The position numbers and the translations under genes were made by a program. From NCBI RefSeq assembly GCF_014083985.1, contig NZ_CP046907.1:3324501-3388500 (forward strand): a DNA stretch of 64,000 nt. The letters are read 5' to 3'. This DNA comes from Streptomyces sp. SCUT-3. GTDB lineage: Bacteria; Actinomycetota; Actinomycetes; Streptomycetales; Streptomycetaceae. Positions 42,438-54,363 of the stretch are shown here, one piece after another. Each line of letters begins with the position of its first letter. Positions within the stretch are counted from its first letter, which is position 1. The notes under the pieces are model-generated. The model ran no database searches. It was not told the DNA's origin and was given only the letters and a program-made list of their open reading frames with translations.

Positions 42438-42520
42438 GGCGGGTTGCCCGAGCGGCCAAAGGGAGCAGACTGTAAATCTGTCGGCTTACGCCTACGCAGG
42501 TTCGAACCCTGCACCCGCCA
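42438..42520 (+). tRNA. tRNA-Tyr (GTA)
   Basis: 83 bases with a long variable arm (class II). Acceptor GGCGGGT pairs with ACCCGCC; anticodon GTA at 42472-42474; T arm GCAGG-TTCGAAC-CCTGC. CCA is not encoded. Streptomyces tRNA-Tyr is a known integration target (SLP1 of S. coelicolor), and a second copy of the 3' end is found downstream at 43381. Confidence 0.95.
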
Positions 42521-42531
42521 CACCAGGGAAG

Positions 42532-42574
42532 CGCCCCTGACCAGCAGAAATGCGGTCAGGGGTGTTTCTTTTCG
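42532..42574 (+). terminator. Terminator of tRNA-Tyr
   Basis: 11-bp arms 42532-42542 and 42554-42564 (one G-T pair) followed by the T-rich run tttcttttc, a classical intrinsic terminator and one of few with a T-tract in this window. Confidence 0.9.
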
Positions 42575-42914
42575 TGCCCGCGGGAGGGGTGGTCGCGCCC
42601 GCGTCGTCCCATCCGCGTCGTCCCACCCGGTGCCGCCCGGATCGAGGTCCGGAACGGCCTGCCGTCCGGCGCCGCGCCGTACCGTCCGGCTCGCCCCGTG
42701 CTTCCGGCCCGCGCCGGTCCTCGGCCGTGTCTCCCGCAGCCGCAGTCGCGGCACGCCCCGGCTCCGGCGGGTCGCGTCGCAGTCCCGGACCTGAGGCCGG
42801 ATTTCGCCTCACCGGGTCTCGAAACACCAGGTCAGTGACGTGATTTGGTTGTTCCCGTCCCGATCTGTGCCGACGGCCACAGCGAATGCGGTACGCATGG
42901 GCTCATACTGAGCC
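42575..42914. other. 340-bp stretch without a gene
   Basis: Open frames here are short, with unlikely composition, and none has a ribosome site. The right end shows CATACT at 42904-42909, a -10-like box five bases before the ATG at 42915. Nothing else is evident. Confidence 0.4.
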
Positions 42915-43136
42915 ATGACAAAGCCCGCGGCACCGAAGCGTCATCTGCCCACCAGCCCCTTCAAAGCCCCGGTCGCGCCGGCTCCCAAGCACTTCGCCGT
43001 GGGCGACCAGGTCACCCATGACGTGCACGGCCTCGGCCGGGTGATCGGCATCGAAGACGGAGTCGCGGTGCTTGTGGATTTCGGCCCGGCACAGATGCGG
43101 ATCCTGAGCCCGTACGCCAAGATGACCAAGCTGTAG
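42915..43136 (+). CDS. Small CarD/SH3-like protein
   Basis: 73 aa. After a basic, Pro-rich start, the core FAVGDQVTHDVHGLGRVIGI, EDGVAVLVDFGPAQMRIL is an SH3-like barrel of the CarD/CdnL/TRCF type, which in larger proteins contacts RNA polymerase. No DNA-binding part is attached. There is no clear ribosome site; a -10-like CATACT lies five bases upstream, so the mRNA may be leaderless. Confidence 0.8.
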   Translation: MTKPAAPKRHLPTSPFKAPVAPAPKHFAVGDQVTHDVHGLGRVIGIEDGVAVLVDFGPAQMRILSPYAKMTKL

Positions 43137-43181
43137 GACCGCTGTGCCCGGTCACGGCACACCAGGTCCCGTCAGGGACCT

Positions 43182-43385
43182 GTGACGAAAGGCAGACCCC
43201 TCATCGACTCGACGTCGCTGTTCTCCGCCCTGGAAGGGCAACCCCGCCGTTCCGCCGCGGTGTCACCGCCTCCGACGACGCAACCCTTCCGGGCCCCGGA
43301 CTTCGGAGAGGACGAGTTCCTCTGGTCCGAGGACGAACAGGTACCCGCCCCGAGCGCGCGTGCGACGCGGCACAGGGCCGCCTAG
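43182..43385 (+). CDS. Small hypothetical protein
   Basis: 67 aa, unrecognised. GTG 43182, 45 bases after the CarD-like gene. It reads PLIDSTSLFSALEGQPRRSA, then an acidic FGEDEFLWSEDEQ segment. Its stop codon lies within the decayed copy of the tRNA-Tyr 3' end. Coding potential is plausible but weak. Confidence 0.45.
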   Translation: MTKGRPLIDSTSLFSALEGQPRRSAAVSPPPTTQPFRAPDFGEDEFLWSEDEQVPAPSARATRHRAA

Positions 43386-43410
43386 CGCGGGTTCGAACCC
43401 GCCCCCGCCA
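43381..43410 (+). pseudogene. Decayed second copy of the tRNA-Tyr 3' end
   Basis: This 30-base stretch runs from CCTA through GGGTTCGAACCC to CCCGCCA, as 42491-42520 of tRNA-Tyr runs from CCTA through GGTTCGAACCC to CCCGCCA. Both are followed by a hairpin whose stem contains CCCCTGACC/GGTCAGGGG. The D and anticodon arms are absent, so it is not a functional tRNA. It may be an attachment site left by an integrated element. Confidence 0.65.
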
Positions 43411-43420
43411 TGCTGGGGCA

Positions 43421-43455
43421 ACGGCCCCTGACCGGTGCAAACGGTCAGGGGCCGT
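43421..43455. terminator. Second copy of the tRNA-Tyr-type terminator
   Basis: Perfect 14-bp arms 43421-43434 and 43442-43455 with a gtgcaaa loop. The stem core matches the tRNA-Tyr terminator at 42532. The remainder to 43689 includes two 13-bp gcgcgggccgcat repeats (43567-43592) and the ribosome site ggaggc of the next gene. Confidence 0.88.
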
Positions 43456-43689
43456 TCGCATGCCCGACAACCCCGGCGCCCCGGGATACCCCGGTGTTCC
43501 CCGCGGGACCGGGCACGATTCCCGGTAGGCCGGCGGAGCGGCTCCGGCCGCCGTGCCGTGCCGCGTGCGCGGGCCGCATGCGCGGGCCGCATGCGGGCCG
43601 GGCGGACGGCACCGGCCACCGGGACACGCCGCCCTTGCCGGGCATAGCCTGAAAGTGTCCTTTATTGCCCGGATTCTTCGGGAGGCGTC

Positions 43690-45490: not shown

Positions 45491-45552
45491 GGCGCCGGGC
45501 GGAACGGTCCCGGACGACGACGGCGGCAGCGGGGGAGAAGGGGAGGCCGGGC

Positions 45553-46041
45553 GTGCAGACGTTCCTGCCGTACGCGGACTTCGCCGAGACGGCCCGGGTG
45601 CTCGACCCCGGGCGCCTGGGCAAGCAGCGCGTGGAGGCGCTGCAGGTGCTGCGCGGCCTGGTCGTCCCCGGCTACGGGTGGCGCCGCCACCCGGCGGTGC
45701 TGATGTGGACCGGGTACGAGGAGGCGCTGGTGCGCTACGGCCTGGACATCTGCGCCCGCTGGTGCGAGGAGGGGCGGCGGGACACCTGCGCCGCCACCCT
45801 GCGCGCCGACCTCGCCGCGCACGTCGGCCTCACCGAGGTGCGCGGCCGGGCCGCCCTCGCCCGCGCCGGCGAACTGCCGCCGTGGCTGGGGGACCCCGGC
45901 TTCCACCTCAGCCACCGGTCGTCGCTGGTCCGCAAGGCCCCGGAGCACTACCGCCGGTTCTTCCCCGACGTGCCGGACTCCCTGCCGTACGTGTGGCCCG
46001 TCTCCGACCGCCCGGGGCGCGTCCGGCCGAACGGGCGGTGA
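45553..46041 (+). CDS. MSMEG_6728 / pyrimidine-dimer-glycosylase-like protein
   Basis: 162 aa. MQTFLPYADFAETARVLDPG, RLGKQRVEALQVLRGLV and GYGWRRHPAVLMWTGYEEAL match the actinobacterial MSMEG_6728-type family related to the Pyr_excise fold of T4 endonuclease V. The catalytic capacity of these proteins is not established. HLSHRSSLVRKAPEHYRRFF closes the fold. GTG at 45553 with ggaggc upstream. Confidence 0.83.
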   Translation: MQTFLPYADFAETARVLDPGRLGKQRVEALQVLRGLVVPGYGWRRHPAVLMWTGYEEALVRYGLDICARWCEEGRRDTCAATLRADLAAHVGLTEVRGRAALARAGELPPWLGDPGFHLSHRSSLVRKAPEHYRRFFPDVPDSLPYVWPVSDRPGRVRPNGR

Positions 46042-54159: not shown

Positions 54160-54363
54160 GAACGGATACTGCCGCATGCCGGCGGCGCGCGGGTACCGGC
54201 ATGCCGTGCGGCGCCCGGTCCGCGGGCGGGCTCGGGGCCCCGGACCCCGGGTCCGGCGCCTTCCGGCGCGCCCGCCGCCCGCCGGGGCGGTGCCCGGCCC
54301 GCGGACGCGGCCCGGCGCGCCCGGCGCGTCCCCCCGGCGCGCGGCGCGCGGAACGGACGCGGA

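What the first reader, a model, noticed from the sequence alone, without database searches (positions are those of the whole stretch)
42438..43455. Second, decayed tRNA-Tyr 3' end with its terminator: a likely scar of an SLP1-like element
Bases 43381-43410 repeat the last 30 bases of tRNA-Tyr in outline and are followed by a hairpin sharing CCCCTGACC/GGTCAGGGG with the tRNA terminator. Integrative elements that enter tRNA genes rebuild the 3' end and leave such copies. In S. coelicolor, SLP1 uses a tRNA-Tyr gene. Here only two small genes lie between the copies, so the element would be largely lost.
Basis: partly seen in the sequence, partly recalled or inferred. Interest (0 to 1): 0.55.

Follow-up and report, generated by a model that had tools for sequence, protein, structure and literature searches.

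The report
Relic two-gene element in tRNA gene
Next to a tyrosine tRNA gene in a Streptomyces-like bacterium lies a decayed second copy of that tRNA's end, and the two tiny genes caught between the copies turn out to be a module found behind several different tRNA genes in related bacteria, so this looks like the remains of a very small mobile element rather than a simple scar.

Summary
Bases 43379-43451 match the 3' end plus terminator of tRNA-Tyr (42438-42521): alignment score 56, against 26 for the best unrelated place in 64 kb. tRNA-Tyr is the best source among 68 tRNA ends of the own genome. The copy is closest to an orphan tRNA-Tyr 3' copy bounding an integrase-bearing element in another genome (score 88; best of 112 tRNA-Tyr genes 66; own 56). 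Of 73 named relatives, 1 has anything comparable.

The two genes (CarD-like, 73 aa; orf67) form a sharply bounded ~0.5-0.6 kb module. In 87 loci its flanks fall into 29 contexts by my criterion, while a control flank is one group in 72 of 74. tRNA genes lie upstream on the same strand: 30 left, 1 right, 0 of 31 on the opposite strand. At tRNA-Ser, -Val and -Gly the module is bracketed by tRNA 3'-half repeats of 36-124 nt, 94-100% identical. Best reading: a relic of a miniature, integrase-less, CIME-like element. SLP1 membership fails; movement is inferred.

The parts
42438..42521 (+). tRNA-Tyr (gta), intact left end (attL equivalent)
   Evidence: ARAGORN; Rfam tRNA 54.3 bits
42532..42567 (+). 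terminator hairpin of tRNA-Tyr
   Evidence: sequence; aligned with the second copy
42788..43386 (+). recurrent module: leader, CarD-like gene, orf67
   Evidence: best matches in other genomes begin at 42788-42815 and end at 43383-43403 (top nine); sharp edges
42915..43136 (+). 73-aa CarD-like protein, one small Tudor/RID-type beta fold, without the CarD C-terminal domain
   Evidence: Pfam CarD_TRCF_RID 22.3 bits, just under the cut-off of 23; AlphaFold2 model, mean pLDDT 75, with UvrD/PcrA Tudor domains and the CdnL N-domain among the top Foldseek hits; codon differences 686/295/1456 at positions 1/2/3 over 84 loci
43182..43385 (+). orf67, small protein without Pfam or NCBIfam match, conserved motifs TSLFSA and PF-APDFG
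   Evidence: found within 200 nt downstream of the CarD-like gene in 80 of 87 loci
43379..43387 (+). junction CGCCTAGCG: the end of orf67 in related loci (CGCCTAGCG in 3 of 11, TGCCTAGCG in 2 of 11) and tRNA-Tyr (CGCCTA-CG) share it apart from one gap
   Evidence: alignment with 11 orthologous loci and with tRNA-Tyr
43381..43410 (+). second, decayed tRNA-Tyr 3' end (T-arm, acceptor 3' strand, CCA), attR equivalent
43420..43456 (+). terminator hairpin of the second copy
43440..43517 (+). right flank, 72-79% identical over 71-78 nt to flanks of orphan tRNA-Tyr copies (own genome at 3562 kb, G010, G007); also 73% to the flank of the G007 tRNA-Tyr gene and 74% to a tRNA-Ser flank (L013), so not specific to orphans

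Best explanation
The interval 42438-43517 is the relic of a site-specific integration into tRNA-Tyr. A small element carrying its own tRNA-Tyr 3' part inserted at the 3' part of the gene, restored the tRNA on the left and left a tRNA 3' end with a terminator on the right, where it has decayed. The element's cargo is the CarD-like/orf67 module. The same module lies behind tRNA-Ser(gga), tRNA-Arg(acg), tRNA-Val(tac), tRNA-Gly(ccc) and tRNA-Arg(cct) genes in other genomes; at Ser, Val and Gly it is in some cases still bracketed by near-perfect tRNA 3'-half repeats with no full integrase found between them. It therefore works like a miniature cis-mobilizable element (CIME): att sites plus cargo, moved by the integrase of a neighbouring or co-resident actinomycete ICE (AICE). 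Shown: the repeats, the module's recurrence, its side and strand bias behind tRNA genes, and integrase C-terminal fragments in two loci. Inferred: that integrase action moved the units, that a partner AICE supplied it, and that the window's right end was trimmed to the orf67 stop by recombination at CGCCTAGCG. The CarD-like protein probably binds RNA polymerase (inference from fold).
For: Second copy real and tRNA-Tyr-derived. It is closest to orphan copies: G010 orphan 88, two G007 orphans 71 and 69, best of 112 tRNA-Tyr genes 66, own 56; its downstream 120 nt score 62-78 against 4 of 5 orphans, where the current tRNA-Tyr downstream scores 31-38. Integrases lie between tRNA-Tyr and the second copy in G010 and G007, with RepSA and FtsK-type Tra in G007. 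No hit for the module beside tRNA-Tyr in 80 named loci, as far as their contigs reach. In 87 module loci, 30 tRNA genes are left and 1 right, all 31 on the module's strand. Bracketing tRNA 3' repeats: L325 124 nt 100%, L331 56 nt 96%, L333 44 nt 98%, L381 36 nt 94%, and L328 70 nt 90% over 3' end and terminator. A tRNA 3'-end panel finds right-hand orphan copies in 4 of 87 and left-hand ones in 3 of 87, none in a control stretch and none on the other strand. Integrase C-terminal fragments between left repeat and module in L325 and L331. G307 order: tRNA-Ser, integrase, att copy, integrase fragment, module, att copy. Flank groups 44 and 49 against 3 for the control.
Against: The window's right copy starts at the edge of the T-arm, not at the anticodon as the fresh repeats do, and is missed by blastn. 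No integrase trace is in the window. 64 of 87 module loci have no tRNA gene within 2.1 kb upstream, and 82 of 87 have no tRNA-type bracketing repeat by blastn (81 if the window's is counted), so the module may often persist as an ordinary chromosomal pair. 13 of the 23 tRNA-linked loci share one tRNA (Ser-gga) and are not independent. 112 tRNA-Tyr downstream flanks do not tell which window flank is ancestral (copy side better in 45, current side in 62, tie 5). The module was not seen within an intact AICE in the 87 loci; phages gave none and plasmid records two.
Confidence: 0.72

Rival explanations
1. A normal AICE at tRNA-Tyr decayed to its right att site, and the CarD-like/orf67 pair, an ordinary chromosomal gene pair, was later joined to it by unrelated recombination at the shared CGCCTAGCG.
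For: The junction lies in a short shared stretch at the orf67 stop; 64 of 87 module loci lack a near tRNA gene and most lack repeats; tRNA-Tyr is a frequent element site.
Against: The module is bracketed by tRNA 3' repeats at three other tRNA genes and lies behind tRNA genes on one side and one strand, which chance joining would not give.
Confidence: 0.2
2. Remnant of an old tandem duplication of tRNA-Tyr, with no mobile element.
For: Only the T-arm and acceptor remain, and both copies have terminators of one type.
Against: 1 of 73 named relatives has a comparable copy; the copy is closer to orphan copies than to any of 112 tRNA-Tyr genes; the interval holds a module that recurs elsewhere.
Confidence: 0.05
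3. Chance: a hairpin after orf67 plus a common Streptomyces terminator that together look like a tRNA end.
For: Like terminators follow tRNA-Ala genes and others; some orf67 orthologues have other hairpins after the stop (read by eye).
Against: Score 56 against 26 for the next place; colinear over about 73 nt with a like spacer; none of 11 orthologous loci continues into a T-arm, nor do those.
Confidence: 0.03

Closest known systems
SLP1 (Gi11) of S. coelicolor, an AICE in tRNA-Tyr
   Same: Same target gene; integration restores the tRNA at attL and leaves a repeat at attR (PMC3009677, passages seen).
   Different: SLP1 is 17.1 kb with a 112-bp repeat and its own genes; here 0.86 kb between the copies, a decayed repeat, no int, rep or tra found.
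CIME (cis-mobilizable element), e.g. XSAM1 beside pSAM2 and TR1 in scab Streptomyces
   Same: att sites kept, integration and transfer genes lost, tandem next to an ICE possible (PMC5704250, PMC4891641, PMC8369830, passages seen).
   Different: The two Streptomyces examples seen are 42 and 20 kb; these units are about 0.9-1.6 kb, share one module and occupy several tRNA genes.
AICE accretion and remnants at tRNA genes
   Same: Several elements and traces stacked at one tRNA gene with shared direct repeats (PMC9513070, PMC3218068, passages seen).
   Different: The passages seen do not describe a recurring two-gene cargo across tRNA sites.
CarD/CdnL and UvrD/PcrA Tudor domains; CrsL
   Same: The 73-aa protein models as a fold of the RNA-polymerase-interacting kind; CrsL is a small disordered CarD partner in actinobacteria (PMC12709188, abstract and passages), a lead for orf67.
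   Different: No CarD C-terminal domain; orf67 was not compared with CrsL.

Membership tests
SLP1-type AICE | insertion at tRNA-Tyr with the 3' end repeated at the far end | tested here: met
SLP1-type AICE | long direct repeat (112 bp in SLP1) | tested here: not met
   homology starts at 43379 at the edge of the T-arm and is decayed; orphan copies in other genomes start near the anticodon with the full tRNA as query
SLP1-type AICE | integrase, replication and Tra genes | tested here: not met
   no tblastn hit below E 0.1 in the window for Int, Rep, Tra, primase-like and GntR queries
CIME | flanked by attL- and attR-like repeats | tested here: met
   decayed in the window; near-perfect in L325, L331, L333, L381
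CIME | no own integration or transfer genes | tested here: met
   window; 87 loci (integrase fragments in L325 and L331 only; a weak, distant integrase match in L275, E 2e-6)
CIME | derived from an ICE | tested here: inconclusive
   integrase C-terminal fragments in two loci only
CIME | moves in cis with an accreted ICE | not testable with these tools
   tandem with an integrase gene at the same tRNA seen in G307; movement not tested
CarD (full-length transcription factor) | N-terminal RID plus C-terminal domain | tested here: not met
   73 aa, RID part only, below the Pfam cut-off

The most novel reading that the evidence does not exclude
The CarD-like/orf67 module is itself a miniature non-autonomous integrative element family of this bacterial family: units of about 0.9-1.6 kb made of a two-gene module and two tRNA-derived att sites, picked up and moved in trans or cis by AICE integrases of several tRNA specificities (Ser, Val, Gly, Tyr and perhaps Arg), spreading a small RNA-polymerase-binding protein with its partner.
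Probability: 0.35. Interest if true: 0.8.

Novelty: new variant of a known kind. Interest (0 to 1): 0.6.

Why it matters
If right, tRNA-gene hot spots in Streptomyces and kin carry, besides large ICEs, about 1-kb integrase-less units with a conserved two-gene cargo of the RNA-polymerase-binding kind. Two questions become testable: how units without an integrase reach several different tRNA genes, and whether a mobile CarD-like protein tunes host transcription. It also gives a way to read such scars: the retained genes, not only the repeats, identify the element.

Tried and rejected
Tandem tRNA duplication and chance resemblance were tested and set aside. Integrase, Rep or Tra remnants were sought in the window and not found. 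The CarD-like protein gave no phage record and two plasmid records; orf67 gave no plasmid record and was not searched in phages. The tRNA-Tyr 3' part in plasmids gave only partial tRNA-type matches in other genera. Which flank of the window is ancestral could not be decided from 112 tRNA-Tyr flanks. Divergence: module 77-88% nt against MurB 81-84% in the same 12 genomes, not decisive. In the orphan list (23 rows) four (L071, L088, L089, L106) sit beside YajQ and may be tRNA-Tyr genes that ARAGORN missed; also, its query began two bases before the anticodon region, so where orphans start is taken instead. The L325 repeat first looked tRNA-free and turned out to be a pair of tRNA-Ser 3' copies. 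Terminator-type repeats (L349, L370) and a 45-nt repeat in L332 were not counted as att pairs. Names such as YajQ, amidohydrolase, MurB and primase are my readings; Pfam supports YajQ as DUF520 and gave nothing for the amidohydrolase-like protein.

Full report
Observation. The window belongs to a 6.08-Mb single-contig genome of a Streptomyces-like organism whose genus holds one genome in the collection. tRNA-Tyr(gta) lies at 42438-42521. From 43379 on, the sequence matches the tRNA-Tyr 3' part (CGCCTA, T-arm, acceptor 3' strand, CCA), then a spacer of like length and a terminator hairpin with the same CCCCTGACC/GGTCAGGGG stem, to 43451. Local alignment of 42470-42572 gives 56; the best place outside the copy gives 26. 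Among 68 distinct tRNA ends plus 60 nt of the own genome, tRNA-Tyr is best for the whole copy (56; next tRNA-His 47, carried by its terminator) and for the T-arm part (36; next tRNA-Leu 30).

The site is an element hot spot. In 200 family genomes (four candidates scored in each), several hold two to four tRNA-Tyr 3' matches, some 4-29 kb apart on one contig. In G010 a tyrosine recombinase (Pfam 27.2 bits, cut-off 27.1) lies next to tRNA-Tyr, an FtsK-like protein (below its cut-off) further in, and a second copy 22 kb away; in G007 RepSA, an FtsK-type protein and a tyrosine recombinase lie between tRNA-Tyr and a second copy 10 kb away. With the full tRNA as query, orphan copies match from about position 27-33 on, near the anticodon. 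The window's copy scores 88 against the G010 orphan, 71 and 69 against two G007 orphans, at most 66 against 112 tRNA-Tyr genes and 56 against its own tRNA-Tyr. Its 120-nt downstream stretch scores 62-78 against four of five orphans, where the current tRNA-Tyr downstream scores 31-38; the fifth gives 31 and 26. Against this, 112 tRNA-Tyr gene flanks do not prefer the copy's flank (45 against 62), and 43440-43517 also matches the flank of the G007 tRNA-Tyr gene and of one tRNA-Ser gene. SLP1 is reported to restore tRNA-Tyr at attL and to leave a 112-bp repeat at attR (PMC3009677, passages).

It is not general. 80 named loci around YajQ were fetched, the nearest by that protein. None has a hit for the CarD-like gene, orf67 or the SnoaL gene beside tRNA-Tyr, though about ten contigs end within 0-3.4 kb. 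In 74 loci with at least 1 kb downstream (the window and 73 named), a second tRNA-Tyr-type copy above 50 was seen in the window (56) and in L049, Streptomyces sp. NEAU-Y11 (80, 5.3 kb downstream); L075 gave 48 forward and 52 on the reverse strand, as a palindromic terminator does. The usual order is YajQ, tRNA-Tyr, a variable stretch, an amidohydrolase-like gene, tRNA-Thr, tRNA-Met; the finding lies in the variable stretch. No integrase, Rep, Tra, primase-like or GntR remnant reaches E below 0.1 in the window.

The two genes are a module. The CarD-like protein (73 aa) matches Pfam CarD_TRCF_RID at 22.3 bits, just under the cut-off; orf67 has no Pfam or NCBIfam match. In 394 family genomes, 261 match 42522-43480 at E 1e-12 or better, many over the CarD-like gene only; the nine best cover from 42788-42815 to 43383-43403 at 84-88%. 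Of eleven such loci, nine end orf67 in GC(C/T)GCCTAG and two in other stops; all then diverge from the window, and none continues into a T-arm. In the window the tRNA copy starts exactly there, within CGCCTAGCG; CGCCTAGCG itself is present in 3 of the 11 and tRNA-Tyr has CGCCTACG. I read this as a recombination junction (inference).

I compared 87 loci: the window, 8, 40, and 38. They were taken mostly from the top of the list, so they are not a random sample, and two genomes (G365, G209) are in twice. All 87 have the CarD-like gene and 80 have orf67 within 200 nt. With five loci as references, homology is shared by 84-86 of 86 others through most of the CarD-like gene and by about 77-81 through most of orf67, falls off at its end, and is down to 15 or fewer 25 nt past the module and to 0-6 at its start (in L331 and L325 the tRNA-Ser repeats add matches further out). 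By blastn over at least 250 nt, left flanks fall into 44 groups of 86 and right flanks into 49 of 87, 29 contexts when linked by either flank; the control, the YajQ flank in another set of genomes, is one group in 72 of 74, and the tRNA-Tyr downstream side one group in 63 of 70. Codon-position differences (686/295/1456 for the CarD-like gene in 84 loci; 1000/923/1457 for orf67 in 79) point to purifying selection, weaker in orf67.

The module lies behind tRNA genes. Of 31 tRNA genes in these loci, 30 lie left of the module, 22 of them within 1 kb, one lies right, and none is on the opposite strand, with 456 kb searched left and 459 kb right. 23 of 87 loci have one within 2.1 kb upstream: nearest tRNA Ser-gga 13, Arg-acg 4, Val-tac 2, Gly-ccc 2, Arg-cct 1, Tyr 1. 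Bracketing direct repeats of a tRNA 3' half are present in L325 (124 nt, 100%, Ser), L331 (56 nt, 96%, Ser), L333 (44 nt, 98%, Val) and L381 (36 nt, 94%, Gly), and of the Ser 3' end plus terminator in L328 (70 nt, 90%). A panel of 95 tRNA 3' ends finds right-hand orphan copies within 1.5 kb in 4 of 87 loci and left-hand ones in 3 of 87, none in a control stretch 2-3.5 kb away and none on the other strand; the window's decayed copy is not found by it. In L325 and L331 an integrase C-terminal fragment lies between the left repeat and the module; L275 has a weak integrase match several kb away (E 2e-6). In G307 the order is tRNA-Ser, an integrase gene, att copy, integrase fragment, module, att copy. 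Distances between repeats are about 1.1 to 1.6 kb, and 0.86 kb in the window (computed).

Interpretation. The window holds the tRNA-Tyr version of this arrangement, older and trimmed. The architecture equals that of a CIME (definition in PMC5704250, passages), but is far smaller than the two Streptomyces examples seen (XSAM1 42 kb, PMC4891641; TR1 20 kb, PMC8369830). Movement is inferred, not shown, and most module loci carry no repeat today. The AlphaFold2 model of the CarD-like protein (mean pLDDT 75) is a small fold of five strands; the top PDB matches are UvrD1/PcrA Tudor domains (best E 9e-4, the only one at 0.001 or less in the printed text besides a tied chain), with the CdnL N-domain (0.03) and CarD (0.14) further down, so RNA polymerase binding is a reasonable guess. 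CrsL, a small disordered CarD partner (PMC12709188, abstract and passages), is a lead for orf67, untested.

What is in print. Searches of open-access full text listed, among the 8-15 titles shown each time at most, no paper on this module; several lists were cut (29,427 papers, 471), subscription papers are not held, and of the papers cited only the passages named were read.

Noticed in passing
own genome G000:C1:3552000-3571999 (L036): An AICE-like set (Int, RepSA-type Rep, FtsK-type Tra by tblastn; GntR and Nudix by Pfam) follows tRNA-Arg(cct), and an orphan tRNA-Tyr 3' copy (L036:10207-10304, minus) plus a second GntR fragment, 96% identical over 167 aa, lie in the same stretch, 195 kb from tRNA-Tyr: perhaps stacked elements of two specificities.
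   Followed up: partly
window 45550-46017: A stretch whose homologue (71%), inverted, lies directly downstream of the module in G176 and G184 (L271, L272) near tRNA-Ser(gga); its presence about 2.2 kb from the module here is unexplained.
   Followed up: no
L049 (Streptomyces sp. NEAU-Y11), 5.3 kb downstream of tRNA-Tyr: A second tRNA-Tyr 3' end with terminator, 85% over 62 nt, with no hit for the module: another old att-like scar.
   Followed up: partly
G007:C76:135893-154134: Three tRNA-Tyr 3' matches in a row within 18 kb, a fourth on contig C55 and one on C34: heavy stacking of tRNA-Tyr elements.
   Followed up: partly
L071, L088, L089, L106 beside YajQ: ARAGORN calls no tRNA-Tyr where a tRNA-Tyr-like 3' end lies beside YajQ; possibly an atypical or altered gene.
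   Followed up: no
L345 and L373: Left-flank orphan tRNA-Arg(cct) and tRNA-Gly(ccc) 3' copies next to the module without a right-hand partner: perhaps half-lost units.
   Followed up: no
window 54227-54325: ARAGORN reports a tRNA-??? with a four-base anticodon; probably a false call.
   Followed up: no
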